A stretch of DNA of 64,000 bases. Source: Sipunculus nudus. Its lineage: Eukaryota > Annelida > Sipuncula > Golfingiida > Sipunculidae. Positions 1-40,991 of this stretch are shown here, in pieces (within the stretch, counting starts at the first letter, position 1; each line of letters begins with the position of its first letter). The notes beneath the pieces are model-generated. The model had not been told where the DNA came from. It did no database searches and saw only the letters and a program-made list of their open reading frames with translations. Both the position numbers and the translations under genes were made by a program. The stretch covers positions 4,046,019 to 4,110,018 of the forward strand of contig CM049306.1 in the NCBI GenBank assembly GCA_026874595.1. Direction: 5' to 3'.

Positions 1-416
1 CAGAGTCTGGTAAAGAATTCCATGCGGTGGCAGCGTACTTGGAAAATTGTCTGTCACCATATACATTATGGGAGCGAGGTACACAGACTATCCTGTGAGC
101 ATCAGAAGAACGAAGAGACCTGCGGGGAGAATATTCCACAAACAGTTTGCGCAAATACAGTGGATACAGGCTATCATTCAGCGCTTTATACACCTGTGTG
201 AGGACTTTAAATGTGATTCTCTTTTCGACAGGCAGCCAGTGAAGCTGTCTTAGAACAGGTCCAATGCTGTCGTACTTCCTGGACCTTGTAAGTAATCGGG
301 CTGATGCGTTTTGTGCAAGTTGGAGGCGATGGATGTTAGCATTGGAAGTTCCAGTTAGCAGGCTGTTGTTGTTGTCCAATCTTGATGTAATCAGTGCGTT
401 GATGGTCTTTGCAGCT
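1..416 (-). mobile_element. LINE fragment copy 1, cut by window edge (probable gamma slot)
   Basis: This is the 5'-truncated end of the non-LTR retrotransposon that recurs eight more times. Only the inner 416 bp are in view; compared with the copy at 3765-4341, the 3' tail, 3' UTR and last codons lie left of position 1. The truncation junction at 416/417 is followed by GATAAG (417-422), the right-hand target-site repeat. The satellite to its right carries the GACACTTACC variant near 831, also seen to the right of the copies ending at 10978 and 27726. That is why the gamma slot is assigned. Confidence 0.9.
1..416 (-). pseudogene. Reverse transcriptase C-terminal fragment, copy 1 (partial)
   Basis: The frame enters open at the truncation point (416) and runs leftward without a stop to the window edge. 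About the last 20 codons and the stop are outside the window. The visible part includes RLDNNNSLLTG, LQLAQNASARLLTR, LHWLPV and WNSLPDSVR, as in the complete copies. It has no start, no catalytic polymerase core and no endonuclease. Confidence 0.85.
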
Positions 417-3400
417 GATAAGACACCTACCTATTTATGCTTCAGTATTATTTTGTGACCAAAGTAGATAAGACACCTACCTCTTTATGCTTCAGTATTA
501 GTTTGTGGCCAAAGTAGATACACCTACCTATTCATGCTTCAGTATTAGTTTGTGGCCAAACTAGATAAGACACCTACCTCTTTATGCTTCAGTATTAGTA
601 TGTGGCCAAAGTAGATAAGACACCTACCTCTTTATGCTTCAGTATTAGTTTGTGGCCAAAGTAGATAAGACACCTACCTCTTTATGCTTCAGTATTAATT
701 TGTGACCAAAGTAGATAAGACACCTACCTCTTTATGCTTCAGTATTAGTTTGTGACCAAAGTAGATAAGACATCTACCTCTTTATGCTTCATTATTAGTA
801 TTTGGCCAAAGTAGATAAGACACTTACCTCTTTATGCTTCAGTATTAGTTTGTTGCCAAAGTAGATAAGACACCTACCTCTTTATGCTTCAGTATTAGTC
901 TGTGGCCAAAGTAGATACACCTACCTATTTATGCTTCAGTTTTAGTATGTGGCCAAAGTAGATAAGACACCTACCTCTTTATGCTTCAGTATTAGTTTGT
1001 GGCCAAAGTAGATAAGACACCTACCTCTTTATGCTTCAGTATTAGTCTGTGGCCAAAGTAGATACACCTACCTCTTTATGCTTCAGTATTAGTATGTGGC
1101 CAAAGTAGATAAGACACCTACCTCTTTATGCTTCAGTATTAGTTTGTGGCCAAAGTAGATAAGACACCTACCTATTTATGCTTCAGTATTAGTGTGTGGC
1201 CAAAGTAGATAAGACACCTACCTCTTTATACTTCAGTATTAGTTTGTGGCCAAAGTATATAAGACACCTACCTCTTTAGGCTTCAGTATTAGTTTGTGGT
1301 CAAAGTAGATAAGACACCTACCTCTTTATGCTTCAGTATTAGTTTGTGACCAAAGTAGATAAGACACCTACCTCTTTATGCTTCAGTATTAGTTTGTGGC
1401 CAAAGTAGATAAGACACCTACCTATTTATGCTTCAGTATTAGTTTGTGGCCAAAGTAGATAAGACACCTATTTCTTTATGCTTCAGTATTAGTTTGTGGC
1501 CAAAGTAGATAAGACACCTACCTATTTATGCTTCAGTATTAGTGTGTGGCCAAAGTAGATAAGACACCTACCTCTTTATACTTCAGTATTAGTTTGTGGC
1601 CAAAGTATATAAGACACCTACCTCTTTAGGCTTCAGTATTAGTTTGTGGTCAAAGTAGATAAGACACCTACCTCTTTATGCTTCAGTATTAGTTTGTGAC
1701 CAAAGTAGATAAGACACCTACCTCTTTATGCTTCAGTATTAGTTTGTGGCCAAAGTAGATAAGACACCTACCTATTTATGCTTCAGTATTAGTTTGTGGC
1801 CAAAGTAGATAAGACACCTATTTCTTTATGCTTCAGTATTAGTTTGTTGCCAAAGTAGATAAAACACCTACATAGTTATGCTTCTGTATTAGTTTGTGGC
1901 CAAAGTAGATAAGACATCTACTTCTTTATGCTTCAGTATTAGTTTGTGGCCAAAGAAGATAAGACACCTACCTATTTATGCTTCAGTATTAGTTTGTGGC
2001 CAAAGCAGATAAGACACCTACCTATTTATGCTTCAGTATTAGTTTGTGGCCAAAGTAGATAAGACATCTACTTCTTAATGCTTCAGTATTAGTTTGTGGC
2101 CAAAGTAGATAAGACACCTACCTCTTTATGCTTCAGTATACGTTTGTGGCCAAAGTAGATAAGAAACCTACCTCTTTATGCTTCAGTATTAGTTTGTGGC
2201 CAAAGTAGATAAGACACCTACCTCTTTATGCTTCAGTATTAGTTTGTGGCCAAAGTAGATAAGACACCTACCTCTTTATGCTTCAGTATACGTTTGTGGC
2301 CAAAGTAGATAAGAAACCTACCTCTTTATGATTCAGTATTAGTTTGTGGCCAAAGTAGATAAGACACCTACCTCTTAATGCTTCATTATTAGTTTGTGGC
2401 CAAAGTAGATAAGACACCTACCTCTTTATGCTTCAGTATTAGTTTGTGGCCAAAGTAGATAAGACACCTACCTCTTTATGCTTCAGTATTAGTTTGTGGC
2501 CAAAGTAGATAAGACATCTACTTCTTTATGCTTCAGTATTAGTTTGTGGCCAAAGTAGATAAGACACCTACCTCTTTATGCTTCAGTATACGTTTGTGGC
2601 CAAAGTAGATAAGAAACATACCTCTTTATGCTTCAGTATTAGTTTGTGGCCAAAGTAGATAAGAAACATACCTCTTTATGCTTCAGTATTAGTTTGTGGC
2701 CAAAGTAGATAAGACACCTACCTCTTAATGCTTCAGTATTAGTTTGTGGCCAAAGTAGATAAGACACCTACCTCTTTATGCTTCAGTATAAGTTTGTGGC
2801 CAAAGTAGATAAGACACCTACCTATTTATGCTTCAGTATTAGTTTGTGGCCAAAGTAGATAAGACACCTACCTCTTAATGCTTCAGTATAAGTTTGTGGC
2901 CAAAGTAGATAAGAAACCTACCTCTTTATGCTTCAGTATTAGTTTGTGGTCAAAGTAGATAAGACACCTACCTCTTTATGCTTCAGTATTAGTTTGTGGC
3001 CAAAGTAGATAAGACACCTACCTATTTATGCTTCAGTATTAGTATGTGGCCAAAGTAGATAAGACACCTATTTTTTTATGCTTCAGTATTAGTTTGTTGC
3101 CAAAGTAGATAAAACACCTACATAGTTATGCTTCTGTATTAGTTTGTGGCCAAAGTAGATAAGACACCTACCTCTTTATGCTTCAGTATAAGTTTGTGGC
3201 CAAAGTAGATAAGAAACCTACCTCTTTATGCTTCAGTATAAGTTTGTGACCAAAGTAGATAAGACACCTACCTCTTTATGCTTCAGTATTAGTTTGTGGC
3301 CAAAGTAGATAAGACACCTACCTCTTTATGCTTCAGTATTAGTATGTGGCCAAAGTAGATAAGACACCTACCTATTTATGCTTCAGTATTAGTTTGTGGC

Positions 3401-3764
3401 CAAAGTAGATAAGACACCTACCTATTTATGCTTCAGTATTAGTTTGTGGCCAAAGTAGATAAGACACCTACCTTTTTATGCTTCAGTATTAGTTTGCGGC
3501 CAAAGTAGATAAGACACCTACCTCTTAATGCTTCAGTACTTAGTATGTGTCAAAAGCTTATAAGCCACCTACCTGTTTATGCTTCAGTATTAGTTTGTTG
3601 CCAAAGTAGATAAGACACCTATATATTTATGCTTCAGGATTGGTTTGTGGCCAAAGTAGATAAGACATCTACCTATTTATGATTCAGTATTAGTTTCTGG
3701 CCAAAGTAGATAAGACACCTACCTCTTTATGCTTCAGTATTAGTTTGCGGCCACAGTAGATAAG
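417..3764. repeat. 50-bp satellite, block A (about 67 monomers)
   Basis: Head-to-tail 50-bp monomers fill the space between LINE copies 1 and 2. A few are 47-bp variants lacking AGA (GTAGATACACC, near 516, 913 and 1061). A seven-monomer segment is duplicated in tandem: the run of AGTGTGTGG, TTTATACTTC and TTTAGGCTTC variants near 1193-1270 recurs 350 bp later near 1543-1620. From about 1850 the block matches block D shifted by 13088 bp, sharing CTTCTGTATTAG, AAGCAGATAAG and GTATACGTTTG monomers. The last five or so monomers (3531-3764) are unusually divergent. No gene or RNA is seen. Confidence 0.97.
3759..3764. repeat. Target-site duplication, left copy (LINE copy 2)
   Basis: GATAAG lies directly left of the insert and again at 4342-4347 on its right. 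The uninterrupted monomer has a single GATAAG at this point, so the doubled hexamer is read as a 6-bp target-site duplication made on insertion. All complete copies show the same arrangement. Confidence 0.75.
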
Positions 3765-3806
3765 GGATATGATGATATGATATGATATGATATGATATGA
3801 TATGAT
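3765..3806 (-). repeat. Pentanucleotide 3' tail of LINE copy 2 (long form)
   Basis: ATATG/ATGAT repeats on the plus strand (TATCA units in the element's sense), with one internal ATG interruption near the outer end. It starts GGATATG and is one pentamer (5 bp) longer than the tail of beta and gamma copies. CR1/L2-group LINEs commonly end in short tandem repeats instead of poly-A. Confidence 0.9.
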
Positions 3807-3863
3807 AGAGTTCATTTATAAAGCGCAAATATAATATACATTTCTATGCGCTGATACAAAGGG

Positions 3864-4341
3864 TTAAGAAAATAAGTATGTCTTGAGAGCACGCTTAAAT
3901 GATTCAATATGTGTACACGCTCTAACAGAGTCTGGTAAAGAATTCCATGCGGTGGCAGCGTACTTGGAAAATTGTCTGTCACCATATACATTATGGGAGC
4001 GAGGTACACAGACTATCCTGTGAGCATCAGAAGAACGAAGAGACCTGCGGGGAGAATATTCCACAAACAGTTTGCGCAAATACAGTGGATACAGGCTATC
4101 ATTCAGCGCTTTATACACCTGTGTGAGGACTTTAAATGTGATTCTCTTTTCGACAGGCAGCCAGTGAAGCTGTCTTAGAACAGGTCCAATGCTGTCGTAC
4201 TTCCTGGACCTTGTAAGTAATCGGGCTGATGCGTTTTGTGCAAGTTGGAGGCGATGGATGTTAGCATTGGAAGTTCCAGTTAGCAGGCTGTTGTTGTTGT
4301 CCAATCTTGATGTAATCAGTGCGTTGATGGTCTTTGCAGCT
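3864..4341 (-). pseudogene. Reverse transcriptase C-terminal domain, 5'-truncated (copy 2)
   Basis: The frame is open from the truncation point through 158 codons to TAA. Translation from the TTG at 4302-4304 as a start would give 146 residues, but that codon is an internal leucine: the frame continues 12 codons further upstream (AAKTINALITSR). Visible motifs counted from the truncation are RLDNNNSLLTG at 12-22, RLQLAQNASARLLTR at 30-44, LHWLPV at 58-63, SPRRSLRSSD at 96-105, AWNSLPDSVR at about 131-140 and SFKRALKTYLF at 147-157. These mark the region downstream of the polymerase core in CR1/L2-type LINE ORF2 proteins. The palm motif with the catalytic aspartates and the endonuclease are absent, so it has no enzymatic activity. 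There is no promoter; expression is not expected. Confidence 0.88.
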
Positions 4342-6545
4342 GATAAGACACCTACCTATTTATGCTTCAGTATTAGTTTGTGGCCAAAGTAGATAAGACA
4401 CCTACCTCTTTATGCTTCAGTATTAGTTTGTGGCCAAAGTAGATAAAACACCTACCTCTTTATGCTTCAGTATTAGTTTGTGGCCAAAGTAGATAAGACA
4501 CCTACCTCTTTATGCTTCAGTATTAGTTTGTGGCCAAAGTAGATAAGACACCTACCTATTTATGCTTCAGTATTAGTGTGTGGCCAAAGTAGATAAGACA
4601 CCTACCTCTTTATACTTCAGTATTAGTTTGTGGCCAAAGTAGATAAGACACCTACCTCTTTAGGCTTCAGTATTAGTTTGTGGCCAAAGTAGATAAAACA
4701 CCTACTTCTTTATGCTTCAGTATTAGTTTGTGGCCAAAGTAGATAAGACACCTTCCTAGTTATGCTTCAGTATTAGTCTGTGGCCAAAGTAGATAAGACA
4801 CCTACCTATTTATGCTTCAATATTAGTCTGTGGCCAAAGTAGATAAGACACCTACCTCTTTATGCTTCAGTATTAGTTTGTGACCAAAGTATATAAGACA
4901 CCTACCTCTTTATGCTTCAGTATTAGTTTGTGGCCAAAGAAGATAAGACACCTACCTATTTATGCTTCAGTATTAGTTTGTGGCCAAAGTAGATAAGACA
5001 CCTACCTATTAATGCTTCAGTATTAGTTTGTGGCCAAAGTAGATAAGACGTCTACCTCTTTATGCTTCAGTATTAGTTTGTGGCCAAAGTAGATAAGACA
5101 CCTTCCTCTTTATGCTTCAGTATTAGTTTGTGGCCAAAGTAGATAAGACACCTGCCTATTTATGCTTCAGTATTAGTTTGTGGCCAAAGTAGATAAGACA
5201 CCTACCTCTTTATGCTTCAGTATTAGTCTGTGGCCAAAGTAGATAAGACACCTACCTCTCTATGCTTCAGTATTAGTTTTTGGCCAAAGTAGATAAGACA
5301 CCTACCTCTTTATGCTTCAGTATTAGTTTGTGGCCAAAGTAGATAAGACACCTACCTCTTTATGCTTCAGTATTAGTTTGTGACCAAAGTAGATAAGACA
5401 CCTACCTCTTTATGCTTCAGTATTAGTTTGTGACCAAAGTAGATAAGACACCTAACTCTTTATGCTTCAGTATTAGTCTGTGGCCAAAGTAGATACACCT
5501 ACCTCTTTATGCTTCAGTATTAGTATGTGGCCAAAGTAGATAAAACACCTACCTCTTTATGCTTCAGTATTAGTTTGTGACCAAAGTAGATAAGACACCT
5601 ACCTCTTTATGCTTCAGTATTAGTTTGTGGCCAAAGTAGATAAGACACCTACCTATTTATGCTTCAGTATTAGTTTGTGGCCAAAGTAGATAAGACACCT
5701 ATTTCTTTATGCTTCAGTATTAGTTTGTTGCCAAAGTAGATAAAACACCTACATAGTTATGCTTCTGTATTAGTTTGTGGCCAAAGTAGATAAGACACCT
5801 ACCTCTTTATGCTTCAGTATAAGTTTGTGGCCAAAGTAGATAAGAAACCTACCTCTTTATGCTTCAGTATAAGTTTGTGACCAAAGTAGATAAGACACCT
5901 ACCTCTTTATGCTTCAGTATTAGTTTGTGGCCAAAGTAGATAAGACACCTACCTCTTTATGCTTCAGTATTAGTATGTGGCCAAAGTAGATAAGACACCT
6001 ACCTATTTATGCTTCAGTATTAGTTTGTGGCCAAAGTAGATAAGACACCTACCTCTTAATGCTTCAGTATTAGTTTGTGGCCAAAGTAGATAAGACACCT
6101 ACCTCTTTATGCTTCAGTATTAGTATGTGGCCAAAGTAGATAAGACACCTACCTATTTATGCTTCAGTATTAGTTTGTGGCCAAAGTAGATAAGACACCT
6201 ACCTCTTAATGCTTCAGTATTAGTTTGTGGCCAAAGTAGATAAGACACCTACCTATTTATGCTTCAGTATTAGTTTGCGGCCAAAGTAGATAAGACACCT
6301 ACCTCTTAATGCTTCAGTACTTAGTATGTGTCAAAAGCTTATAAGCCACCTACCTGTTTATGCTTCAGTATTAGTTTGTTGCCAAAGTAGATAAGACACC
6401 TATATATTTATGCTTCAGGATTGGTTTGTGGCCAAAGTAGATAAGATATCTACCTATTTATGATTCAGTATTAGTTTCTGGCCAAAGTAGATAAGACACC
6501 TACCTCTTTATGCTTCAGTATTAGTTTGCGGCCACAGTAGATAAG
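4342..6545. repeat. 50-bp satellite, block B (about 44 monomers)
   Basis: Satellite between LINE copies 2 and 3. It is the longest version of a block also present at 17430-19483 and 21340-23243, sharing the variants TTAGGCTTC, CACCTTCCTAG, GACGTCTACC and CTCTCTATGC in the same order. Relative to block E it carries one extra three-monomer (150-bp) tandem duplication near 5950-6250, where the AGTATGTGG / CTATTTATG / CTCTTAATG trio occurs twice. The left-of-insert variant GATATCTACC near 6444 is diagnostic of the beta slot. No gene is seen. Confidence 0.97.
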
Positions 6546-6582
6546 TGATATGATGATATGATATGATATGATATGATATGAT
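6546..6582 (-). repeat. Pentanucleotide 3' tail of LINE copy 3 (short form)
   Basis: Short 37-bp version of the pentamer tail, starting TGATATG, with the same ATG interruption as the long form. Confidence 0.88.
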
Positions 6583-6639
6583 AGAGTTCATTTATAAAGC
6601 GCAAATATAATATACATTTCTATGCGCTGATACAAAGGG

Positions 6640-7117
6640 TTAAGAAAATAAGTATGTCTTGAGAGCACGCTTAAATGATTCAATATGTGTACACGCTCTA
6701 ACAGAGTCTGGTAAAGAATTCCATGCGGTGGCAGCGTACTTGGAAAATTGTCTGTCACCATATACATTATGGGAGCGAGGTACACAGACTATCCTGTGAG
6801 CATCAGAAGAACGAAGAGACCTGCGGGGAGAATATTCCACAAACAGTTTGCGCAAATACAGTGGATACAGGCTATCATTCAGCGCTTTATACACCTGTGT
6901 GAGGACTTTAAATGTGATTCTCTTTTCGACAGGCAGCCAGTGAAGCTGTCTTAGAACAGGTCCAATGCTGTCGTACTTCCTGGACCTTGTAAGTAATCGG
7001 GCTGATGCGTTTTGTGCAAGTTGGAGGCGATGGATGTTAGCATTGGAAGTTCCAGTTAGCAGGCTGTTGTTGTTGTCCAATCTTGATGTAATCAGTGCGT
7101 TGATGGTCTTTGCAGCT
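6640..7117 (-). pseudogene. Reverse transcriptase C-terminal domain, truncated (copy 3)
   Basis: 158 open codons plus TAA, encoding the same residues as copy 2. No frameshift or stop distinguishes it. Confidence 0.87.
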
Positions 7118-10100
7118 GATAAGACACCTACCTATTTATGCTTCAGTATTATTTTGTGACCAAAGTAGATAAGACACCTACCTCTTTATGCTTCAGTATT
7201 AGTTTGTGGCCAAAGTAGATACACCTACCTATTCATGCTTCAGTATTAGTTTGTGGCCAAACTAGATAAGACACCTACCTCTTTATGCTTCAGTATTAGT
7301 ATGTGGCCAAAGTAGATAAGACACCTACCTCTTTATGCTTCAGTATTAGTTTGTGGCCAAAGTAGATAAGACACCTACCTCTTTATGCTTCAGTATTAAT
7401 TTGTGACCAAAGTAGATAAGACACCTACCTCTTTATGCTTCAGTATTAGTTTGTGACCAAAGTAGATAAGACATCTACCTCTTTATGCTTCATTATTAGT
7501 ATTTGGCCAAAGTAGATAAGACACCTACCTCTTTATGCTTCAGTATTAGTTTGTTGCCAAAGTAGATAAGACACCTACCTCTTTATGCTTCAGTATTAGT
7601 CTGTGGCCAAAGTAGATACACCTACCTATTTATGCTTCAGTTTTAGTATGTGGCCAAAGTAGATAAGACACCTACCTCTTTATGCTTCAGTATTAGTTTG
7701 TGGCCAAAGTAGATAAGACACCTACCTCTTTATGCTTCAGTATTAGTCTGTGGCCAAAGTAGATACACCTACCTCTTTATGCTTCAGTATTAGTATGTGG
7801 CCAAAGTAGATAAGACACCTACCTCTTTATGCTTCAGTATTAGTCTGTGGCCAAAGTAGATACACCTACCTATTTATGCTTCAGTATTAGTATGTGGCCA
7901 AAGTAGATAAGACACCTACCTCTTTATGCTTCAGTATTAGTTTGTGACCAAAGTAGATAAGACACCTAACTCTTTATGCTTCAGTATTAGTCTGTGGCCA
8001 AAGTAGATACACCTACCTCTTTATGCTTCAGTATTAGTATGTGGCCAAAGTAGATAAAACACCTACCTCTTTATGCTTCAGTATTAGTTTGTGGCCAAAG
8101 TAGATACACCTACCTATTCATGCTTCAGTATTAGTTTGTTGCCAAAGTAGATAAGACACCTTCCTAGTTATGCTTCAGTATTAGTCTGTGGCCAAAGTAG
8201 ATAAGACACCTACCTATTTATGCTTCAATATTAGTCTGTGGCCAAAGTAGATAAGACACCTACCTCTTTATGCTTCAGTATTAGTTTGTGACCAAAGTAT
8301 ATAAGACACCTACCTCTTTATGCTTCAGTATTAGTTTGTGGCCAAAGAAGATAAGACACCTACCTATTTATGCTTCAGTATTAGTTTGTGGCCAAAGTAG
8401 ATAAGACACCTACCTATTAATGCTTCAGTATTAGTTTGTGGCCAAAGTAGATAAGACGTCTACCTCTTTATGCTTCAGTATTAGTACGTGGCCAAAGTAG
8501 ATAAGACACCTTCCTCTTTATGCTTCAGTATTAGTTTGTGGCCAAAGTAGATAAGACACCTGCCTATTTATGCTTCAGTATTAGTTTGTGGCCAAAGTAG
8601 ATAAGACACCTACCTCTTTATGCTTCAGTATTAGTCTGTGGCCAAAGTAGATAAGACACCTACCTCTCTATGCTTCAGTATTAGTTTTTGGCCAAAGTAG
8701 ATAAGACACCTACCTCTTTATGCTTCAGTATTAGTTTGTGGCCAAAGTAGATAAGACACCTACCTCTTTATGCTTCAGTATTAGTTTGTGACCAAAGTAG
8801 ATAAGACACCTACCTCTTTATGCTTCAGTATTAGTACGAGGCAAAAGTAGATAAGACACCTACCTATTTATGCTTCAGTATTAGTACGTGGCCAAAGTAG
8901 ATAAGACACCTACCTATTTATGCTTCAGTATTAGTACGTGGCCAAAGTAGATAAGACACCTACCTGTTTGTGCTTCAGTATTAGTTTGTGGCCAAAGTAG
9001 ATAAGACACCTACCTCTTTATGCTTCAGTATTAGTACGTGGCCAAAGTAGATAAGACACCTACCTATTTGTGCTTCAGTATTAGTTTGTGGCCAAAGTAG
9101 ATAAGACACCTACATATTTATGCTTCAGTATTAGTTTGTGACCAAAGTATATAAGACACCTACCTCTTTATGCTTCAGTATTAGTTTGTGACCAAAGTAG
9201 ATAAGACACCTACCTCTTAATGCTTCAGTATTAGTTTGTGGCCAAAGTAGATAAGACACCTATTTCTTTATGCTTCAGTATTAGTTTGTGGCCAAAGTAG
9301 ATAAGACACCTACCTCTTTATGCTTCAGTATTATTTTGTGACCAAAGTAGATAAGACACCTCCCTCTTTATGCTTCAGTATTAGTTTGTGGCCAAAGTAG
9401 ATAAGACACCTATTTCTTTATGCTTCAGTATTAGTTTGTGGCCAAAGTAGATAAGACACCTACCTCTTTATGCTTCAGTATTATTTTGTGACCAAAGTAG
9501 ATAAGACACCTCCCTCTTTATGCTTCAGTATTAGTTTGTGGCCAAAGTAGATAAGACACCTACCTCTTTATGCTTCAGTATTAGTATGTGGCCAAAGTAG
9601 ATAAGACACCTACCTCTTTATGCTTCAGTATTAGTTTGTGGCCAAAGTAGATAAGACACCTACCTATTTATGCTTCAGTATTAGTTTGTGGCCAAAGTAG
9701 ATAAGACACCTATTTCTTTATGCTTCAGTATTAGTTTGTTGCCAAAGTAGATAAAACACCTACATAGTTATGCTTCTGTATTAGTTTGTGGCCAAAGTAG
9801 ATAAGACACCTACCTCTTTATTCTTCAGTATAAGTTTGTGGCCAAAGTAGATAAGAAACCTACCTCTTTATGCTTCAGTATAAGTTTGTGACCAAAGTAG
9901 ATAAGACACCTACCTCTTTATGCTTCAGTATTAGTTTGTGGCCAAAGTAGATAAGACACCTACCTCTTTATGCTTCAGTATTAGTATGTGGCCAAAGTAG
10001 ATAAGACACCTACCTATTTATGCTTCAGTATTAGTTTGTGGCCAAAGTAGATAAGACACCTACCTCTTAATGCTTCAGTATTAGTTTGTGGCCAAAGTAG

Positions 10101-10406
10101 ATAAGACACCTACCTATTTATGCTTCAGTATTAGTTTGCGGCCAAAGTAGATAAGACACCTACCTCTTAATGCTTCAGTACTTAGTATGTGTCAAAAGCT
10201 TATAAGCCACCTACCTGTTTATGCTTCAGTATTAGTTTGTTGCCAAAGTAGATAAGACACCTATATATTTATGCTTCAGGATTGGTTTGTGGCCAAAGTA
10301 GATAAGACATCTACTTATTTATGATTCAGTATTAGTTTCTGGCCAAAGTAGATAAGACACCTACCTCTTTATGCTTCAGTATTAGTTTGCGGCCACAGTA
10401 GATAAG
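7118..10406. repeat. 50-bp satellite, block C (about 66 monomers)
   Basis: Satellite between LINE copies 3 and 4, containing several 47-bp monomers (near 7220, 7616, 7762, 7859, 8006 and 8105). It is matched nearly monomer for monomer by block H (23816-27154), which is 50 bp longer. Distinctive monomers include a run of TACGTGGCC variants (about 8830-9050) and paired CTATTTC / CTCCCTC monomers (about 9260-9530). The gamma-slot variant GACATCTACTTATT is near 10306. No coding potential is seen. Confidence 0.97.
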
Positions 10407-10443
10407 TGATATGATGATATGATATGATATGATATGATATGAT
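10407..10443 (-). repeat. Pentanucleotide 3' tail of LINE copy 4 (short form)
   Basis: 37-bp pentamer tail of the TGATATG-start type. Confidence 0.88.
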
Positions 10444-10500
10444 AGAGTTCATTTATAAAGCGCAAATATAATATACATTTCTATGCGCTGATACAAAGGG

Positions 10501-16852: not shown

Positions 16853-16894
16853 GGATATGATGATATGATATGATATGATATGATATGATATGAT
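16853..16894 (-). repeat. Pentanucleotide 3' tail of LINE copy 5 (long form)
   Basis: 42-bp pentamer tail of the GGATATG-start type. Confidence 0.88.
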
Positions 16895-16951
16895 AGAGTT
16901 CATTTATAAAGCGCAAATATAATATACATTTCTATGCGCTGATACAAAGGG

Positions 16952-17429
16952 TTAAGAAAATAAGTATGTCTTGAGAGCACGCTTAAATGATTCAATATGT
17001 GTACACGCTCTAACAGAGTCTGGTAAAGAATTCCATGCGGTGGCAGCGTACTTGGAAAATTGTCTGTCACCATATACATTATGGGAGCGAGGTACACAGA
17101 CTATCCTGTGAGCATCAGAAGAACGAAGAGACCTGCGGGGAGAATATTCCACAAACAGTTTGCGCAAATACAGTGGATACAGGCTATCATTCAGCGCTTT
17201 ATACACCTGTGTGAGGACTTTAAATGTGATTCTCTTTTCGACAGGCAGCCAGTGAAGCTGTCTTAGAACAGGTCCAATGCTGTCGTACTTCCTGGACCTT
17301 GTAAGTAATCGGGCTGATGCGTTTTGTGCAAGTTGGAGGCGATGGATGTTAGCATTGGAAGTTCCAGTTAGCAGGCTGTTGTTGTTGTCCAATCTTGATG
17401 TAATCAGTGCGTTGATGGTCTTTGCAGCT
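16952..17429 (-). pseudogene. Reverse transcriptase C-terminal domain, truncated (copy 5)
   Basis: 158 open codons then TAA; no difference from copy 2 in the translation. Confidence 0.87.
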
Positions 17430-19483
17430 GATAAGACACCTACCTATTTATGCTTCAGTATTAGTTTGTGGCCAAAGTAGATAAGACACCTACCTCTTTA
17501 TGCTTCAGTATTAGTTTGTGGCCAAAGTAGATAAAACACCTACCTCTTTATGCTTCAGTATTAGTTTGTGGCCAAAGTAGATAAGACACCTACCTCTTTA
17601 TGCTTCAGTATTAGTTTGTGGCCAAAGTAGATAAGACACCTACCTATTTATGCTTCAGTATTAGTGTGTGGCCAAAGTAGATAAGACACCTACCTCTTTA
17701 TACTTCAGTATTAGTTTGTGGCCAAAGTAGATAAGACACCTACCTCTTTAGGCTTCAGTATTAGTTTGTGGCCAAAGTAGATAAAACACCTACTTCTTTA
17801 TGCTTCAGTATTAGTTTGTGGCCAAAGTAGATAAGACACCTTCCTAGTTATGCTTCAGTATTAGTCTGTGGCCAAAGTAGATAAGACACCTACCTATTTA
17901 TGCTTCAATATTAGTCTGTGGCCAAAGTAGATAAGACACCTACCTCTTTATGCTTCAGTATTAGTTTGTGACCAAAGTATATAAGACACCTACCTCTTTA
18001 TGCTTCAGTATTAATTTGTGGCCAAAGAAGATAAGACACCTACCTATTTATGCTTCAGTATTAGTTTGTGGCCAAAGTAGATAAGACACCTACCTATTAA
18101 TGCTTCAGTATTAGTTTGTGGCCAAAGTAGATAAGACGTCTACCTCTTTATGCTTCAGTATTAGTTTGTGGCCAAAGTAGATAAGACACCTTCCTCTTTA
18201 TGCTTCAGTATTAGTTTGTGGCCAAAGTAGATGAGACACCTGCCTATTTATGCTTCAGTATTAGTTTGTGGCCAAAGTAGATAAGACACCTACCTCTTTA
18301 TGCTTCAGTATTAGTCTGTGGCCAAAGTAGATAAGACACCTACCTCTCTATGCTTCAGTATTAGTTTTTGGCCAAAGTAGATAAGACACCTACCTCTTTA
18401 TGCTTCAGTATTAGTTTGTGGCCAAAGTAGATAAGACACCTACCTCTTTATGCTTCAGTATTAGTTTGTGACCAAAGTAGATAAGACACCTACCTCTTTA
18501 TGCTTCAGTATTAGTTTGTGACCAAAGTAGATAAGACACCTAACTCTTTATGCTTCAGTATTAGTCTGTGGCCAAAGTAGATACACCTACCTCTTTATGC
18601 TTCAGTATTAGTATGTGGCCAAAGTAGATAAAACACCTACCTCTTTATGCTTCAGTATTAGTTTGTGACCAAAGTAGATAAGACACCTACCTCTTTATGC
18701 TTCAGTATTAGTTTGTGGCCAAAGTAGATAAGACACCTACCTATTTATGCTTCAGTATTAGTTTGTGGCCAAAGTAGATAAGACACCTATTTCTTTATGC
18801 TTCAGTATTAGTTTGTTGCCAAATTAGATAAAACACCTACATAGTTATGCTTCTGTATTAGTTTGTGGCCAAAGTAGATAAGACACCTACCTCTTTATGC
18901 TTCAGTATAAGTTTGTGGCCAAAGTAGATAAGAAACCTACCTCTTTATGCTTCAGTATAAGTTTGTGACCAAAGTAGATAAGACACCTACCTCTTTATGC
19001 TTCAGTATTAGTTTGTGGCCAAAGTAGATAAGACACCTACCTCTTTATGCTTCAGTATTAGTATGTGGCCAAAGTAGATAAGACACCTACCTATTTATGC
19101 TTCAGTATTAGTTTGTGGCCAAAGTAGATAAGACACCTACCTCTTAATGCTTCAGTATTAGTTTGTGGCCAAAGTAGATAAGACACCTACCTATTTATGC
19201 TTCAGTATTAGTTTGCGGCCAAAGTAGATAAGACACCTACCTCTTAATGCTTCAGTACTTAGTATGTGTCAAAAGCTTATAAGCCACCTACCTGTTTATG
19301 CTTCAGTATTAGTTTGTTGCCAAAGTAGATAAGACACCTATATATTTATGCTTCAGGATTGGTTTGTGGCCAAAGTAGATAAGATATCTACCTATTTATG
19401 ATTCAGTATTAGTTTCTGGCCAAAGTAGATAAGACACCTACCTCTTTATGCTTCAGTATTAGTTTGCGGCCACAGTAGATAAG
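17430..19483. repeat. 50-bp satellite, block E (about 41 monomers)
   Basis: Equivalent of block B, exactly 150 bp shorter, lacking the three-monomer duplication. Private changes separate it from B, for example GATGAGACACCTGCC near 18231, AAATTAGATAAAAC near 18822 and ATTAATTTGTGGCC near 18011 (the last shared with block G). The beta-slot marker GATATCTACC is near 19383. Confidence 0.96.
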
Positions 19484-19520
19484 TGATATGATGATATGAT
19501 ATGATATGATATGATATGAT
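19484..19520 (-). repeat. Pentanucleotide 3' tail of LINE copy 6 (short form)
   Basis: 37-bp pentamer tail of the TGATATG-start type. Confidence 0.88.
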
Positions 19521-19577
19521 AGAGTTCATTTATAAAGCGCAAATATAATATACATTTCTATGCGCTGATACAAAGGG

Positions 19578-20055
19578 TTAAGAAAATAAGTATGTCTTGA
19601 GAGCACGCTTAAATGATTCAATATGTGTACACGCTCTAACAGAGTCTGGTAAAGAATTCCATGCGGTGGCAGCGTACTTGGAAAATTGTCTGTCACCATA
19701 TACATTATGGGAGCGAGGTACACAGACTATCCTGTGAGCATCAGAAGAACGAAGAGACCTGCGGGGAGAATATTCCACAAACAGTTTGCGCAAATACAGT
19801 GGATACAGGCTATCATTCAGCGCTTTATACACCTGTGTGAGGACTTTAAATGTGATTCTCTTTTCGACAGGCAGCCAGTGAAGCTGTCTTAGAACAGGTC
19901 CAATGCTGTCGTACTTCCTGGACCTTGTAAGTAATCGGGCTGATGCGTTTTGTGCAAGTTGGAGGCGATGGATGTTAGCATTGGAAGTTCCAGTTAGCAG
20001 GCTGTTGTTGTTGTCCAATCTTGATGTAATCAGTGCGTTGATGGTCTTTGCAGCT
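19578..20055 (-). pseudogene. Reverse transcriptase C-terminal domain, truncated (copy 6)
   Basis: Same 158-codon open frame, ending in TAA at 19578-19580; no disabling change apart from the shared truncation. Confidence 0.87.
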
Positions 20056-20762
20056 GATAAGACACCTACCTATTTATGCTTCAGTATTAGTTTGTTGCCA
20101 AAGTAGATAAAACACCTACATAGTTATGCTTCTGTATTAGTTTGTGGCCAAAGTAGATAAGACACCTACCTCTTTATGCTTCAGTATAAGTTTGTGGCCA
20201 AAGTAGATAAGAAACCTACCTCTTTATGCTTCAGTATAAGTTTGTGACCAAAGTAGATAAGACACCTACCTCTTTATGCTTCAGTATTAGTTTGTGGCCA
20301 AAGTAGATAAGACACCTACCTCTTTATGCTTCAGTATTAGTATGTGGCCAAAGTAGATAAGACACCTACCTATTTATGCTTCAGTATTAGTTTGTGGCCA
20401 AAGTAGATAAGACACCTACCTATTTATGCTTCAGTATTAGTTTGTGGCCAAAGTAGATAAGACACCTACCTTTTTATGCTTCAGTATTAGTTTGCGGCCA
20501 AAGTAGATAAGACACCTACCTCTTAATGCTTCAGTACTTAGTATGTGTCAAAAGCTTATAAGCCACCTACCTGTTTATGCTTCAGTATTAGTTTGTTGCC
20601 AAAGTAGATAAGACACCTATATATTTATGCTTCAGGATTGGTTTGTGGCCAAAGTAGATAAGACATCTACCTATTTATGATTCAGTATTAGTTTCTGGCC
20701 AAAGTAGATAAGACACCTACCTCTTTATGCTTCAGTATTAGTTTGCGGCCACAGTAGATAAG
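20056..20762. repeat. 50-bp satellite, block F (14 monomers, deletion-fused)
   Basis: Much the shortest spacer. It begins with the usual right flank of the insert but then joins monomers that sit at the far end of blocks A and D (TTTGTTGCC, CTACATAG, TATAAGTTTG, CTTTTTATG), finishing with the alpha-slot marker GACATCTACCTATT near 20663. The simplest reading is one large deletion that removed the start-to-end interior of a C-gamma-D stretch. Confidence 0.95.
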
Positions 20763-20804
20763 GGATATGATGATATGATATGATATGATATGATATGATA
20801 TGAT
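20763..20804 (-). repeat. Pentanucleotide 3' tail of LINE copy 7 (long form)
   Basis: 42-bp pentamer tail of the GGATATG-start type. Confidence 0.88.
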
Positions 20805-20861
20805 AGAGTTCATTTATAAAGCGCAAATATAATATACATTTCTATGCGCTGATACAAAGGG

Positions 20862-21339
20862 TTAAGAAAATAAGTATGTCTTGAGAGCACGCTTAAATGA
20901 TTCAATATGTGTACACGCTCTAACAGAGTCTGGTAAAGAATTCCATGCGGTGGCAGCGTACTTGGAAAATTGTCTGTCACCATATACATTATGGGAGCGA
21001 GGTACACAGACTATCCTGTGAGCATCAGAAGAACGAAGAGACCTGCGGGGAGAATATTCCACAAACAGTTTGCGCAAATACAGTGGATACAGGCTATCAT
21101 TCAGCGCTTTATACACCTGTGTGAGGACTTTAAATGTGATTCTCTTTTCGACAGGCAGCCAGTGAAGCTGTCTTAGAACAGGTCCAATGCTGTCGTACTT
21201 CCTGGACCTTGTAAGTAATCGGGCTGATGCGTTTTGTGCAAGTTGGAGGCGATGGATGTTAGCATTGGAAGTTCCAGTTAGCAGGCTGTTGTTGTTGTCC
21301 AATCTTGATGTAATCAGTGCGTTGATGGTCTTTGCAGCT
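20862..21339 (-). pseudogene. Reverse transcriptase C-terminal domain, truncated (copy 7)
   Basis: Open 158-codon frame to TAA at 20862-20864, with the same translation as the other copies. Confidence 0.87.
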
Positions 21340-23243
21340 GATAAGACACCTACCTATTTATGCTTCAGTATTAGTTTGTGGCCAAAGTAGATAAGACACC
21401 TACCTCTTTATGCTTCAGTATTAGTTTGTGGCCAAAGTAGATAAAACACCTACCTCTTTATGCTTCAGTATTAGTTTGTGGCCAAAGTAGATAAGACACC
21501 TACCTCTTTATGCTTCAGTATTAGTTTGTGGCCAAAGTAGATAAGACACCTACCTATTTATGCTTCAGTATTAGTGTGTGGCCAAAGTAGATAAGACACC
21601 TACCTCTTTATACTTCAGTATTAGTTTGTGGCCAAAGTAGATAAGACACCTACCTCTTTAGGCTTCAGTATTAGTTTGTGGCCAAAGTAGATAAAACACC
21701 TACTTCTTTATGCTTCAGTATTAGTTTGTGGCCAAAGTAGATAAGACACCTTCCTAGTTATGCTTCAGTATTAGTCTGTGGCCAAAGTAGATAAGACACC
21801 TACCTATTTATGCTTCAATATTAGTCTGTGGCCAAAGTAGATAAGACACCTACCTCTTTATACTTCAGTATTAGTTTGTGACCAAAGTATATAAGACACC
21901 TACCTCTTTATGCTTCAGTATTAATTTGTGGCCAAAGAAGATAAGACACCTACCTATTTATGCTTCAGTATTAGTTTGTGGCCAAAGTAGATAAGACACC
22001 TACCTATTAATGCTTCAGTATTAGTTTGTGGCCAAAGTAGATAAGACGTCTACCTCTTTATGCTTCAGTATTAGTCTGTGGCCAAAGTAGATAAGACACC
22101 TACCTCTCTATGCTTCAGTATTAGTTTTTGGCCAAAGTAGATAAGACACCTACCTCTTTATGCTTCAGTATTAGTTTGTGGCCAAAGTAGATAAGACACC
22201 TACCTCTTTATGCTTCAGTATTAGTTTGTGACCAAAGTAGATAAGACACCTACCTCTTTATGCTTCAGTATTAGTTTGTGACCAAAGTAGATAAGACACC
22301 TAACTCTTTATGCTTCAGTATTAGTCTGTGGCCAAAGTAGATACACCTACCTCTTTATGCTTCAGTATTAGTATGTGGCCAAAGTAGATAAAACACCTAC
22401 CTCTTTATGCTTCAGTATTAGTTTGTGACCAAAGTAGATAAGACACCTACCTCTTTATGCTTCAGTATTAGTTTGTGGCCAAAGTAGATAAGACACCTAC
22501 CTATTTATGCTTCAGTATTAGTTTGTGGCCAAAGTAGATAAGACACCTATTTCTTTATGCTTCAGTATTAGTTTGTTGCCAAAGTAGATAAAACACCTAC
22601 ATAGTTATGCTTCTGTATTAGTTTGTGGCCAAAGTAGATAAGACACCTACCTCTTTATGCTTCAGTATAAGTTTGTGGCCAAAGTAGATAAGAAACCTAC
22701 CTCTTTATGCTTCAGTATAAGTTTGTGACCAAAGTAGATAAGACACCTACCTCTTTATGCTTCAGTATTAGTTTGTGGCCAAAGTAGATAAGACACCTAC
22801 CTCTTTATGCTTCAGTATTAGTATGTGGCCAAAGTAGATAAGACACCTACCTATTTATGCTTCAGTATTAGTTTGTGGCCAAAGTAGATAAGACACCTAC
22901 CTCTTAATGCTTCAGTATTAGTTTGTGGCCAAAGTAGATAAGACACCTACCTATTTATGCTTCAGTATTAGTTTGCGGCCAAAGTAGATAAGACACCTAC
23001 CTCTTAATGCTTCAGTACTTAGTATGTGTCAAAAGCTTATAAGCCACCTACCTGTTTATGCTTCAGTATTAGTTTGTTGCCAAAGTAGATAAGACACCTA
23101 TATATTTATGCTTCAGGATTGGTTTGTGGCCAAAGTAGATAAGATATCTACCTATTTATGATTCAGTATTAGTTTCTGGCCAAAGTAGATAAGACACCTA
23201 CCTCTTTATGCTTCAGTATTAGTTTGCGGCCACAGTAGATAAG
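21340..23243. repeat. 50-bp satellite, block G (about 38 monomers)
   Basis: Equivalent of blocks B and E. It is 150 bp shorter than E because three monomers are missing near 22072: the GACGTCTACC monomer joins directly to the AGTCTGTGG monomer, whereas in E the TTCCTC and CTGCC monomers lie between (about 18167-18317). The beta-slot marker GATATCTACC is near 23143. Confidence 0.96.
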
Positions 23244-23280
23244 TGATATGATGATATGATATGATATGATATGATATGAT
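23244..23280 (-). repeat. Pentanucleotide 3' tail of LINE copy 8 (short form)
   Basis: 37-bp pentamer tail of the TGATATG-start type. Confidence 0.88.
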
Positions 23281-23337
23281 AGAGTTCATTTATAAAGCGC
23301 AAATATAATATACATTTCTATGCGCTGATACAAAGGG

Positions 23338-23815
23338 TTAAGAAAATAAGTATGTCTTGAGAGCACGCTTAAATGATTCAATATGTGTACACGCTCTAAC
23401 AGAGTCTGGTAAAGAATTCCATGCGGTGGCAGCGTACTTGGAAAATTGTCTGTCACCATATACATTATGGGAGCGAGGTACACAGACTATCCTGTGAGCA
23501 TCAGAAGAACGAAGAGACCTGCGGGGAGAATATTCCACAAACAGTTTGCGCAAATACAGTGGATACAGGCTATCATTCAGCGCTTTATACACCTGTGTGA
23601 GGACTTTAAATGTGATTCTCTTTTCGACAGGCAGCCAGTGAAGCTGTCTTAGAACAGGTCCAATGCTGTCGTACTTCCTGGACCTTGTAAGTAATCGGGC
23701 TGATGCGTTTTGTGCAAGTTGGAGGCGATGGATGTTAGCATTGGAAGTTCCAGTTAGCAGGCTGTTGTTGTTGTCCAATCTTGATGTAATCAGTGCGTTG
23801 ATGGTCTTTGCAGCT
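23338..23815 (-). pseudogene. Reverse transcriptase C-terminal domain, truncated (copy 8)
   Basis: 158 open codons and TAA at 23338-23340; translation unchanged. Confidence 0.87.
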
Positions 23816-26800
23816 GATAAGACACCTACCTATTTATGCTTCAGTATTATTTTGTGACCAAAGTAGATAAGACACCTACCTCTTTATGCTTCAGTATTAG
23901 TTTGTGGCCAAAGTAGATACACCTACCTATTCATGCTTCAGTATTAGTTTGTGGCCAAACTAGATAAGACACCTACCTCTTTATGCTTCAGTATTAGTAT
24001 GTGGCCAAAGTAGATAAGACACCTACCTCTTTATGCTTCAGTATTAGTTTGTGGCCAAAGTAGATAAGACACCTACCTCTTTATGCTTCAGTATTAATTT
24101 GTGACCAAAGTAGATAAGACACCTACCTCTTTATGCTTCAGTATTAGTTTGTGACCAAAGTAGATAAGACATCTACCTCTTTATGCTTCATTATTAGTAT
24201 TTGGCCAAAGTAGATAAGACACCTACCTCTTTATGCTTCAGTATTAGTTTGTTGCCAAAGTAGATAAGACACCTACCTCTTTATGCTTCAGTATTAGTCT
24301 GTGGCCAAAGTAGATACACCTACCTATTTATGCTTCAGTTTTAGTATGTGGCCAAAGTAGATAAGACACCTACCTCTTTATGCTTCAGCATTAGTTTGTG
24401 GCCAAAGTAGATAAGACACCTACCTCTTTATGCTTCAGTATTAGTCTGTGGCCAAAGTAGATACACCTACCTCTTTATGCTTCAGTATTAGTATGTGGCC
24501 AAAGTAGATAAGACACCTACCTCTTTATGCTTCAGTATTAGTCTGTGGCCAAAGTAGATACACCTACCTATTTATGCTTCAGTATTAGTATGTGGCCAAA
24601 GTAGATAAGACACCTACCTCTTTATGCTTCAGTATTAGTTTGTGACCAAAGTAGATAAGACACCTAACTCTTTATGCTTCAGTATTAGTCTGTGGCCAAA
24701 GTAGATACACCTACCTCTTTATGCTTCAGTATTAGTATGTGGCCAAAGTAGATAAAACACCTACCTCTTTATGCTTCAGTATTAGTTTGTGGCCAAAGTA
24801 GATACACCTACCTATTCATGCTTCAGTATTAGTTTGTTGCCAAAGTAGATAAGACACCTTCCTAGTTATGCTTCAGTATTAGTCTGTGGCCAAAGTAGAT
24901 AAGACACCTACCTATTTATGCTTCAATATTAGTCTGTGGCCAAAGTAGATAAGACACCTACCTCTTTATGCTTCAGTATTAGTTTGTGACCAAAGTATAT
25001 AAGACACCTACCTCTTTATGCTTCAGTATTAGTTTGTGGCCAAAGAAGATAAGACACCTACCTATTTATGCTTCAGTATTAGTTTGTGGCCAAAGTAGAT
25101 AAGACACCTACCTATTAATGCTTCAGTATTAGTTTGTGGCCAAAGTAGATAAGACGTCTACCTCTTTATGCTTCAGTATTAGTTTGTGGCCAAAGTAGAT
25201 AAGACACCTTCCTCTTTATGCTTCAGTATTAGTTTGTGGCCAAAGTAGATAAGACACCTGCCTATTTATGCTTCAGTATTAGTTTGTGGCCAAAGTAGAT
25301 AAGACACCTACCTCTTTATGCTTCAGTATTAGTCTGTGGCCAAAGTAGATAAGACACCTACCTCTCTATGCTTCAGTATTAGTTTTTGGCCAAAGTAGAT
25401 AAGACACCTACCTCTTTATGCTTCAGTATTAGTTTGTGGCCAAAGTAGATAAGACACCTACCTCTTTATGCTTCAGTATTAGTTTGTGACCAAAGTAGAT
25501 AAGACACCTACCTCTTTATGCTTCAGTATTAGTACGAGGCAAAAGTAGATAAGACACCTACCTATTTATGCTTCAGTATTAGTACGTGGCCAAAGTAGAT
25601 AAGACACCTACCTATTTATGCTTCAGTATTAGTACGTGGCCAAAGTAGATAAGACACCTACCTGTTTGTGCTTCAGTATTAGTTTGTGGCCAAAGTAGAT
25701 AAGACACCTACCTCTTTATGCTTCAGTATTAGTACGTGGCCAAAGTAGATAAGACACCTACCTATTTGTGCTTCAGTATTAGTTTGTGGCCAAAGTAGAT
25801 AAGACACCTACATATTTATGCTTCAGTATTAGTTTGTGACCAAAGTATATAAGACACCTACCTCTTTATGCTTCAGTATTAGTTTGTGACCAAAGTAGAT
25901 AAGACACCTACCTCTTAATGCTTCAGTATTAGTTTGTGGCCAAAGTAGATAAGACACCTATTTCTTTATGCTTCAGTATTAGTTTGTGGCCAAAGTAGAT
26001 AAGACACCTACCTCTTTATGCTTCAGTATTATTTTGTGACCAAAGTAGATAAGACACCTCCCTCTTTATGCTTCAGTATTAGTTTGTGGCCAAAGTAGAT
26101 AAGACACCTATTTCTTTATGCTTCAGTATTAGTTTGTGGCCAAAGTAGATAAGACACCTACCTCTTTATGCTTCAGTATTATTTTGTGACCAAAGTAGAT
26201 AAGACACCTCCCTCTTTATGCTTCAGTATTAGTTTGTGGCCAAAAAAGATAAGACACCTACCTCTTTATGCTTCAGTATTAGTATGTGGCCAAAGTAGAT
26301 AAGACACCTACCTCTTTATGCTTCAGTATTAGTTTGTGGCCAAAGTAGATAAGACACCTACCTATTTATGCTTCAGTATTAGTTTGTGGCCAAAGTAGAT
26401 AAGACACCTATTTCTTTATGCTTCAGTATTAGTTTGTTGCCAAAGTAGATAAAACACCTACATAGTTATGCTTCTGTATTAGTTTGTGGCCAAAGTAGAT
26501 AAGACACCTACCTCTTTATTCTTCAGTATAAGTTTGTGGCCAAAGTAGATAAGAAACCTACCTCTTTATGCTTCAGTATAAGTTTGTGACCAAAGTAGAT
26601 AAGACACCTACCTCTTTATGCTTCAGTATTAGTATGTGGCCAAAGTAGATAAGACACCTACCTATTTATGCTTCAGTATTAGTTTGTGGCCAAAGTAGAT
26701 AAGACACCTACCTCTTTATGCTTCAGTATTAGTATGTGGCCAAAGTAGATAAGACACCTACCTATTTATGCTTCAGTATTAGTTTGTGGCCAAAGTAGAT

Positions 26801-27154
26801 AAGACACCTACCTCTTAATGCTTCAGTATTAGTTTGTGGCCAAAGTAGATAAGACACCTACCTATTTATGCTTCAGTATTAGTTTGCGGCCAAAGTAGAT
26901 AAGACACCTACCTCTTAATGCTTCAGTACTTAGTATGTGTCAAAAGCTTATAAGCCACCTACCTGTTTATGCTTCAGTATTAGTTTGTTGCCAAAGTAGA
27001 TAAGACACCTATATATTTATGCTTCAGGATTGGTTTGTGGCCAAAGTAGATAAGACATCTACTTATTTATGATTCAGTATTAGTTTCTGGCCAAAGTAGA
27101 TAAGACACCTACCTCTTTATGCTTCAGTATTAGTTTGCGGCCACAGTAGATAAG
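23816..27154. repeat. 50-bp satellite, block H (about 67 monomers)
   Basis: Counterpart of block C, with the same order of 47-bp, TACGTGGCC, CTATTTC and CTCCCTC monomers, and one monomer longer. Small private changes exist, such as CAAAAAAGATAAG near 26241 and CTTCAGCATTAG near 24384. The net extra monomer lies near 26620-26770, where AGTATGTGG / CTATTTATG pairs alternate twice. The gamma marker GACATCTACTTATT is near 27055. Confidence 0.97.
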
Positions 27155-27191
27155 TGATATGATGATATGATATGATATGATATGATATGAT
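27155..27191 (-). repeat. Pentanucleotide 3' tail of LINE copy 9 (short form)
   Basis: 37-bp pentamer tail of the TGATATG-start type. Confidence 0.88.
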
Positions 27192-27248
27192 AGAGTTCAT
27201 TTATAAAGCGCAAATATAATATACATTTCTATGCGCTGATACAAAGGG

Positions 27249-27726
27249 TTAAGAAAATAAGTATGTCTTGAGAGCACGCTTAAATGATTCAATATGTGTA
27301 CACGCTCTAACAGAGTCTGGTAAAGAATTCCATGCGGTGGCAGCGTACTTGGAAAATTGTCTGTCACCATATACATTATGGGAGCGAGGTACACAGACTA
27401 TCCTGTGAGCATCAGAAGAACGAAGAGACCTGCGGGGAGAATATTCCACAAACAGTTTGCGCAAATACAGTGGATACAGGCTATCATTCAGCGCTTTATA
27501 CACCTGTGTGAGGACTTTAAATGTGATTCTCTTTTCGACAGGCAGCCAGTGAAGCTGTCTTAGAACAGGTCCAATGCTGTCGTACTTCCTGGACCTTGTA
27601 AGTAATCGGGCTGATGCGTTTTGTGCAAGTTGGAGGCGATGGATGTTAGCATTGGAAGTTCCAGTTAGCAGGCTGTTGTTGTTGTCCAATCTTGATGTAA
27701 TCAGTGCGTTGATGGTCTTTGCAGCT
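27249..27726 (-). pseudogene. Reverse transcriptase C-terminal domain, truncated (copy 9)
   Basis: 158 open codons and TAA at 27249-27251; translation unchanged. Confidence 0.87.
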
Positions 27727-40973: not shown

Positions 40974-40991
40974 GCGGCCACAGTAGATAAG
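40974..40991. repeat. Empty-site-like monomer 1
   Basis: GCGGCCACAGTAGATAAG, the same 18 bases that end at the left edge of every LINE insertion, but here running straight on into ACACCTACCTATTTATG, the sequence found at the right edge of the insert. Confidence 0.7.

What the first reader, a model, noticed from the sequence alone, without database searches (positions are those of the whole stretch)
1..27726. One LINE insertion captured by a satellite and amplified to nine copies
Nine inserts share the same 5' truncation point, the same satellite position, the same GATAAG boundaries and, in the eight complete copies, the same translated protein. Independent insertions would differ in truncation length and target position. 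The direct reading is a single target-primed insertion into one monomer, then copying of insert plus flanks by unequal exchange or segmental amplification, so that a dead retrotransposon became a component of a higher-order satellite unit.
Basis: partly seen in the sequence, partly recalled or inferred. Interest (0 to 1): 0.8.

Follow-up and report, generated by a model that had tools for sequence, protein, structure and literature searches.

The report
LINE fragment multiplied within satellite
A broken piece of a young mobile element landed once in a 50-base satellite array and was copied along with the satellite around it, so its copies now act as markers that record how the array grew; the process is of a known kind, but this is an unusually readable case.

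Summary
Nine inserts (eight complete, 572 or 577 bp; one cut by the window edge) lie in a 50-bp satellite, with the same 5' truncation, orientation and GATAAG boundaries. The array is about 228 kb at one place and holds 18 such inserts. The insert is the 3' end of a young ~3.17-kb non-LTR retrotransposon with endonuclease and reverse-transcriptase domains. Of 35 dispersed copies found by an exact probe, 35 continue upstream as LINE, so none shares the truncation. The nearest 300 bp on the left differ by 0.5% on average, against 6.5% for random satellite stretches. With one recombinant (c15) left out, markers near the insert fit a single tree (0 of 66 pairs conflict; 5 of 66 with c15); conflicts rise with distance. 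Insert classes follow the order G2-T1-T2, so a multi-insert unit was itself amplified. Best reading: one target-primed insertion, then repeated out-of-register copying within the satellite. New member of a known kind.

The parts
1..64000 (+). 50-bp satellite array (nearly all of the window apart from the inserts; continues on both sides, about C1:3897.4-4125.7 kb)
   Evidence: TRF period 50, 1270 copies over 417-64000; 1495 of 1495 exact genome-wide hits of a 31-bp monomer probe lie in the fetched stretch C1:3885019-4131000
1..416 (-). insert c10 (T1 class), its tail side cut by the window start; right GATAAG at 417-422
3765..4341 (-). insert c11 (G2), LINE 3' end with ATGAT microsatellite; GATAAG at 3759-3764 and 4342-4347
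6546..7117 (-). insert c12 (T1)
10407..10978 (-). insert c13 (T2)
16853..17429 (-). insert c14 (G2)
19484..20055 (-). insert c15 (T1) with a replaced right flank, whose best matches (99.3%) lie 701 bp left of six other G2 copies
20763..21339 (-). insert c16 (G2)
23244..23815 (-). insert c17 (T1)
27155..27726 (-). insert c18 (T2), last copy found; no further match to the insert query to the right within the array stretch searched
3249..3758 (+). left flank of c11 (example): about 500 bp that stay alike in all 18 copies; c01, c12 and c18 depart further out
   Evidence: left 460 bp: mean 0.5%, max 1.3% difference; 600 bp: mean 0.8%, max 2.2%; outer sites
1..5724 (+). part of the second copy of a perfect tandem duplication of 14,207 bp (starts C1:4023308 and 4037515); includes c10 and c11
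   Evidence: 14,228-bp exact match, 21-bp overlap

Best explanation
One 5'-truncated retrotransposition of a young non-LTR element (about 3.17 kb; endonuclease plus RT; ATATC-type microsatellite tail) hit a single monomer of a pre-existing 50-bp satellite at CTTATC/GATAAG, leaving a 6-bp target-site duplication. The insert was then a passenger of the satellite's own turnover. Misaligned exchange or copying in 50-bp register duplicated it with flank, giving two lineages that differ at the left junction (G or T) and in the right flank. A multi-insert unit in the order G2-T1-T2 was later duplicated several times, most recently as a perfect 14.2-kb tandem copy. Shown: shared junctions, shared left flank, class order, exact duplications, this truncation not found in the 35 dispersed copies. 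Inferred: that the copying step was unequal exchange, that the insert is only a passenger, and that the G type has the original right flank.
For: 18 copies share truncation, phase, orientation and GATAAG. 35 of 35 dispersed exact-probe copies are not truncated there. Left 300 bp: mean difference 0.0050, max 0.0133; in 40 draws of 18 random satellite stretches the mean is 0.0649 and 0.34% of random pairs are at or under 0.0133 (a first single draw gave 0.068). Insert body: four changes in all, one of them shared by c06 and c09, plus the G/T site. The left-junction G/T matches the right-flank class in 17 of 17 copies with c15 set aside. Site compatibility is complete near the insert without c15 and decays with distance. 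Class order: 9 of 9 possible G2-T1 and T1-T2 adjacencies, reached by 36 of 200,000 shuffles; 8 of 8 after removing c09-c11, reached by 28 of 200,000. The right flank of c15 matches the sequence 701 bp left of six other G2 copies at 99.3% and of other copies at 98.5-98.7%, as a misaligned exchange would leave. Long exact repeats also occur in the insert-free part (9,633 bp), so the satellite does this without inserts.
Against: No complete empty allele was found: the best uninterrupted relatives of the joined flanks are 94-96% alike. The right flanks of the two lineages differ by 4% already in the first monomer and 3.7% at 300 bp, against 0-0.7% on the left, which needs an extra replacement step. 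Near-insert markers conflict in 5 of 66 pairs if c15 is kept. The perfect 14.2-kb duplicate could be an assembly over-count. Some random satellite pairs are also nearly identical (minimum 0.17% at 600 bp), because the array is full of recent duplications. Unequal exchange was not separated from break-induced replication or reinsertion of a circle.
Confidence: 0.93

Rival explanations
1. One insertion, but copy number rose mainly through circles excised from the array, rolling-circle amplification and reinsertion, or break-induced replication, rather than unequal crossover.
For: A perfect 14,207-bp tandem unit with 21-bp overlap and multi-kilobase exact blocks fit these routes as well.
Against: Breakpoints at many distances from the insert and same-class spacers that differ by multiples of 50 bp look like repeated in-register exchange; no copy of the satellite elsewhere by the exact probe. 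None of this is decisive.
Confidence: 0.3
2. Two independent insertions (G and T lineages) at the same monomer type, with bodies homogenised by gene conversion.
For: The two lineages differ at the left junction base and by 3.7% in the right 300 bp.
Against: The left flank is alike in all 18 copies over about 500 bp; the truncation is identical and not seen in 35 dispersed copies; replacement of a right flank is documented by c15; the right flanks of the two lineages are still closer than most random pairs (4.0% of random pairs at or under 0.04 at 300 bp).
Confidence: 0.03
3. Assembly artefact: some or all extra copies are over-duplicated haplotypes or expanded repeats.
For: One 14.2-kb duplication is letter-perfect, so c09-c11 could be a false repeat of c06-c08.
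Against: Other copies differ in microsatellite length, private changes, flanks or spacing; removing c09-c11 leaves 15 copies and the same class order.
Confidence: 0.05

Closest known systems
G5 (Jockey-type non-LTR element) clusters inside the Responder satellite of Drosophila melanogaster
   Same: Non-LTR elements interspersed with satellite repeats as small clusters within one array (PMC12871663, passages seen)
   Different: There two small islands; here 18 copies of one truncated fragment with a readable class order. Whether the G5 copies descend from one insertion is not in the passages seen, and Khost 2017 is not held
Centromeric CRM retrotransposons of Brachypodium, suggested to be duplicated post-integration
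   Same: Element copies thought to multiply after integration into satellite-rich centromeres (PMC10910784, passages seen)
   Different: LTR elements at centromeres; here a 5'-truncated LINE fragment in a single-locus array of unknown chromosomal role
Gorilla alpha-satellite monomers sharing one small insertion within a higher-order unit
   Same: One insertion present in certain monomer types of a higher-order unit and carried to many monomers (PMC4585704, passages seen)
   Different: The insertion is a local duplication of about 20 bp, not a transposable element
CR1/L2-type non-LTR retrotransposons ending in a microsatellite
   Same: Endonuclease and RT domains, microsatellite 3' end, 5' truncation
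   Different: Clade not tested by a tree; the CR1/L2 name and its hallmarks rest on recall

Membership tests
APE-type non-LTR retrotransposon (LINE) | Reverse transcriptase domain | tested here: met
   RVT_1 E=4.7e-27 in the L014 frame; LINE-1 ORF2 and R2 chains matched
APE-type non-LTR retrotransposon (LINE) | APE-type endonuclease domain | tested here: met
   Exo_endo_phos E=1.2e-10, Exo_endo_phos_2 E=2.5e-7
APE-type non-LTR retrotransposon (LINE) | Variable 5' truncation, fixed 3' end with simple tail | tested here: met
   Of five fetched dispersed copies three start at different points and two at a shared 5' end; tails are ATATC repeats; six copies plus L014 itself start at that 5' end, two more 17-18 bases later
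CR1/L2 clade | Placement in a tree of RT sequences | not tested
   No reference set of clades on hand; the name is recalled from the tail type
Target-primed insertion of the array copy | Target-site duplication flanking a 5'-truncated, tail-bearing copy | tested here: met
   GATAAG on both sides in 18 of 18; it is only 6 bp, and every satellite monomer type carries GATAAG or a close form, so the call rests on the empty monomers
Higher-order satellite repeat | Recurring ordered unit of distinguishable subunits more alike between units than within | tested here: met
   Order G2-T1-T2; same-class spacers 97.6-100% alike (98.2% for the shortened c15-c16 spacer), one cross-class control 96.1%
Higher-order satellite repeat | Regular period | tested here: not met
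   Insert-to-insert distances run from 1,279 to 15,134 bp, with recurrent values near 2.6, 3.9 and 6.4 kb
Amplification by unequal crossover | Reciprocal products or allelic length variants | not testable with these tools
   One assembly, no population or pedigree data

The most novel reading that the evidence does not exclude
The insert is more than a passenger: as a block of about 575 bp almost identical in every copy, inside monomers that differ by about 6-7%, it became a preferred anchor for recombination and drove growth of the insert-bearing domain, so that a truncated LINE acts as the engine of a higher-order satellite unit.
Probability: 0.07. Interest if true: 0.55.

Novelty: new member of a known kind. 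Interest (0 to 1): 0.3.

Why it matters
A single insertion tags a satellite array, so the order and breakpoints of later exchanges can be read from 18 marked copies, which is hard in homogeneous satellites. It offers a test bed for how higher-order units arise. The kind of event is not new: post-integration duplication has been suggested for plant centromeric retrotransposons, and non-LTR clusters inside a fly satellite are known.

Tried and rejected
Independent insertions: rejected by the shared left flank and by the truncation not being found in 35 dispersed copies. Finding an intact empty allele: not found. Fifteen places hold the last-left monomer variant directly followed by a normal monomer; in two of them (C1:3993149, 3994049) the 92 bases that follow differ from the G right flank at one base, but their left sides are out of register by about two monomers. 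With 250 bp on each side, joined G flanks match uninterrupted satellite slightly better (95.6%) than joined T flanks (94.4%), and the six best places listed for G lie within about 6 kb of c01; with 450 bp five of six do. This is weak support for a G-type origin near c01. Crossover inside the insert as the driver: no G-left/T-right or T-left/G-right recombinant among 17 copies, though exchanges between two G or two T copies would be invisible. Likewise the BLAST extension lengths run through ordinary satellite and are not used as a measure of shared flank. Mantel tests of distance matrices were weak and mixed (left-right r=0.39, p=0.005 at 300 bp and r=0.22, p=0.08 at 600 bp; insert-left r=0.15, p=0.18 and r=0.24, p=0.10; insert-right r=0.15, p=0.18 and r=0.23, p=0.04) and are not used as evidence. 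Formal insert and flank trees were not built, since the inserts hold too few changes; site compatibility was used instead. Pfam gave no family for the 159-aa insert fragment itself. Flanks of the array were compared with each other; the only inverted match among the rows printed is a 98-bp, 74% one near the edges and was not pursued.
Full report
WHAT IS THERE. The window is C1:4046019-4110018 of an unnamed 1.43-Gb genome of 153 contigs. Apart from the inserts it is satellite with a 50-bp period (the commonest monomer spacing counted, 742 times, is 50). All 1495 exact genome-wide hits of a 31-bp monomer probe fall within the fetched stretch C1:3885019-4131000, so by that probe the satellite exists at one place, about 3897.4 to 4125.7 kb (edges read by eye). 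A 401-bp satellite query gave 309 matches; the 150 or so listed are all there too. Divergent relatives elsewhere were not excluded.

THE INSERTS. The insert query finds nine places in the window and 18 in the array, C1:3995813-4073745, all in one orientation. I name them c01-c18; the window holds c10-c18. Each has GATAAG on both sides and the same 5' truncation (18 of 18); the LINE part is 567 to 582 bp. An exact junction pattern finds 15 of them and nothing else in the genome; the three it misses, c02, c06 and c09, have a base change beside the junction. The insert bodies are nearly identical: one private change in c01, two in c02, one shared by c06 and c09. Besides these, the copies differ by G or T after the left GATAAG (nine copies each) and by 5 to 8 microsatellite units. 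Fifteen of 18 encode the same 158-aa end of the LINE protein; c02, c06 and c09 differ. With so few changes, the open frame says nothing about selection.

THE SOURCE ELEMENT. Twenty-two dispersed matches appear, at 99-100% identity, in a capped list of the best 40; I fetched five of the 22. Three begin at different points and two (L013, L014) at the same 5' end. A search with that end finds six copies starting at the same base besides L014 itself, and two starting 17-18 bases later, so I take the full-length element to be about 3.17 kb. The L014 frame, which runs in from flanking DNA, has RVT_1 and two endonuclease matches. The fetched copies are 98.5-99.3% identical to each other, so the family is young. 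The tail is ATATC repeats. By eye, L015 has a target-site duplication of about 8 bp that begins with letters of the tail, which resembles the CTTATC target in the array. CR1/L2 affinity is recalled from the tail type and was not tested.

IS THE TRUNCATION UNIQUE? The 42-mer at the truncation point has 50 exact hits, 15 in the array and 35 dispersed. With 12 more upstream LINE bases and up to 3 mismatches, 38 hits are found, all dispersed, and they include all 35. So none of 35 shares the truncation. Copies with mismatches in the 42-mer were not examined beyond those 38.

COMMON DESCENT OF THE FLANKS. On the left, copies differ by 0% over 50 bp, 0.5% on average over 300 bp (max 1.3%) and 0.8% over 600 bp (max 2.2%); random satellite stretches (40 draws of 18) differ by 6.5%, and 0.34% of random pairs at 300 bp are at or under 1.3%. 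The outer part of the left flank, beyond about 500 bp, departs in c01, c12 and c18. On the right there are two classes, which follow the G or T of the left junction in 17 of 17 copies; c15 is the exception with a third right flank. Between the two classes the right side differs by 4% in the first monomer, 3.7% at 300 bp and 5.4% at 600 bp: more than the left, less than random. I read this as replacement of the right flank in one lineage, probably by related neighbours. The third flank, of c15, matches at 99.3% the sequence 701 bp left of six other G2 copies, and at 98.5-98.7% the same place left of other copies; c16, a G2 copy, follows c15 after a 701-bp spacer. That is a direct trace of a misaligned exchange between the monomer right of a T1 insert and one left of a G2 insert. 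Within 340 bp left, the insert and 200 bp right, 0 of 66 informative site pairs conflict without c15 (5 of 66 with it); at 340/300 bp 9 of 136 (16 with c15), and at 640/460 bp 232 of 780 (244 with c15). That is what one origin followed by exchange outside the core predicts.

HIGHER-ORDER STRUCTURE. Near sites sort the copies into a basal pair (c01, c02), G2 (c03, c06, c08, c09, c11, c14, c16), T1 (c04, c07, c10, c12, c15, c17) and T2 (c05, c13, c18). Along the array the order is: basal, basal, then G2-T1-T2, G2-T1, G2, G2-T1, G2-T1-T2, G2-T1, G2-T1-T2. All six T1 follow a G2 and all three T2 follow a T1; 36 of 200,000 label shuffles of c03-c18 reach this, and 28 of 200,000 when the duplicate block c09-c11 is removed. 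The classes were defined after seeing the data, but from flank and junction sites, not from order. Same-class spacers are 97.6-100% alike and, save for the shortened c15-c16 one, differ in length by multiples of 50; the one cross-class control is 96.1%. Insert-to-insert distances are irregular (1,279-15,134 bp) with recurrent values near 2.6, 3.9 and 6.4 kb. The latest event is a perfect 14,207-bp tandem duplication carrying c06-c08 to c09-c11; it could be real or an assembly over-count.

MECHANISM. Shown: one junction, one orientation, shared left flank, ordered classes, exact duplications, spacer lengths in steps of 50 bp. Inferred: a single target-primed insertion with 6-bp duplication, then repeated out-of-register exchange. 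Long exact repeats are also present in the insert-free part (9,633 bp), so the insert is most likely a passenger. Break-induced replication or circle reinsertion would leave similar traces and was not separated.

LITERATURE. I made nine answered searches and saw passages, not whole texts, of nine papers (with 60, 59). Closest: G5 non-LTR islands within the Responder satellite (PMC12871663), CRM elements suggested to be duplicated post-integration in Brachypodium centromeres (PMC10910784), and a small insertion shared by certain gorilla alpha-satellite monomers (PMC4585704). The other six gave nothing closer in the passages shown. Recalled only, not held: post-integration duplication of ATHILA in Arabidopsis centromeres.

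VERDICT. It is a new member of a known kind, of moderate interest as a marked array.

Noticed in passing
C1:4023308-4051742 (window 1-5724 is part of it): A perfect 14,207-bp tandem duplication with 21-bp overlap; it is either very recent or an assembly over-duplication.
   Followed up: partly
L016 (C9:73049500-73054500): A dispersed copy of the same LINE lies between copies of another tandem repeat (a unit like TATGATCTGTTTCACTGACC, seen by eye), so this element may land in tandem repeats more than once.
   Followed up: no
C1:3897326-3897422 and C1:4129986-4130082: A 98-bp inverted match (74%) lies near the left edge of the array and about 4 kb beyond its right edge; it may be a common dispersed repeat or a trace of an older element.
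   Followed up: no
C1:3890-3894 kb and C1:4126-4127 kb: Both flanks of the array carry copies of a repeat that match each other at 66-79%, many times over on the left.
   Followed up: no
C1:3886-3888 kb (L018): Sequence left of the array looked to me, by eye, like a decayed non-LTR reverse transcriptase on the minus strand (printed); not translated or searched.
   Followed up: no
window 40974-60346; also C1:4110-4124 kb and C1:3993-3994 kb: Fifteen uninterrupted copies of the monomer variant that carries the insert: eight in the window, five to its right and two near c01; the target monomer type survives empty.
   Followed up: partly
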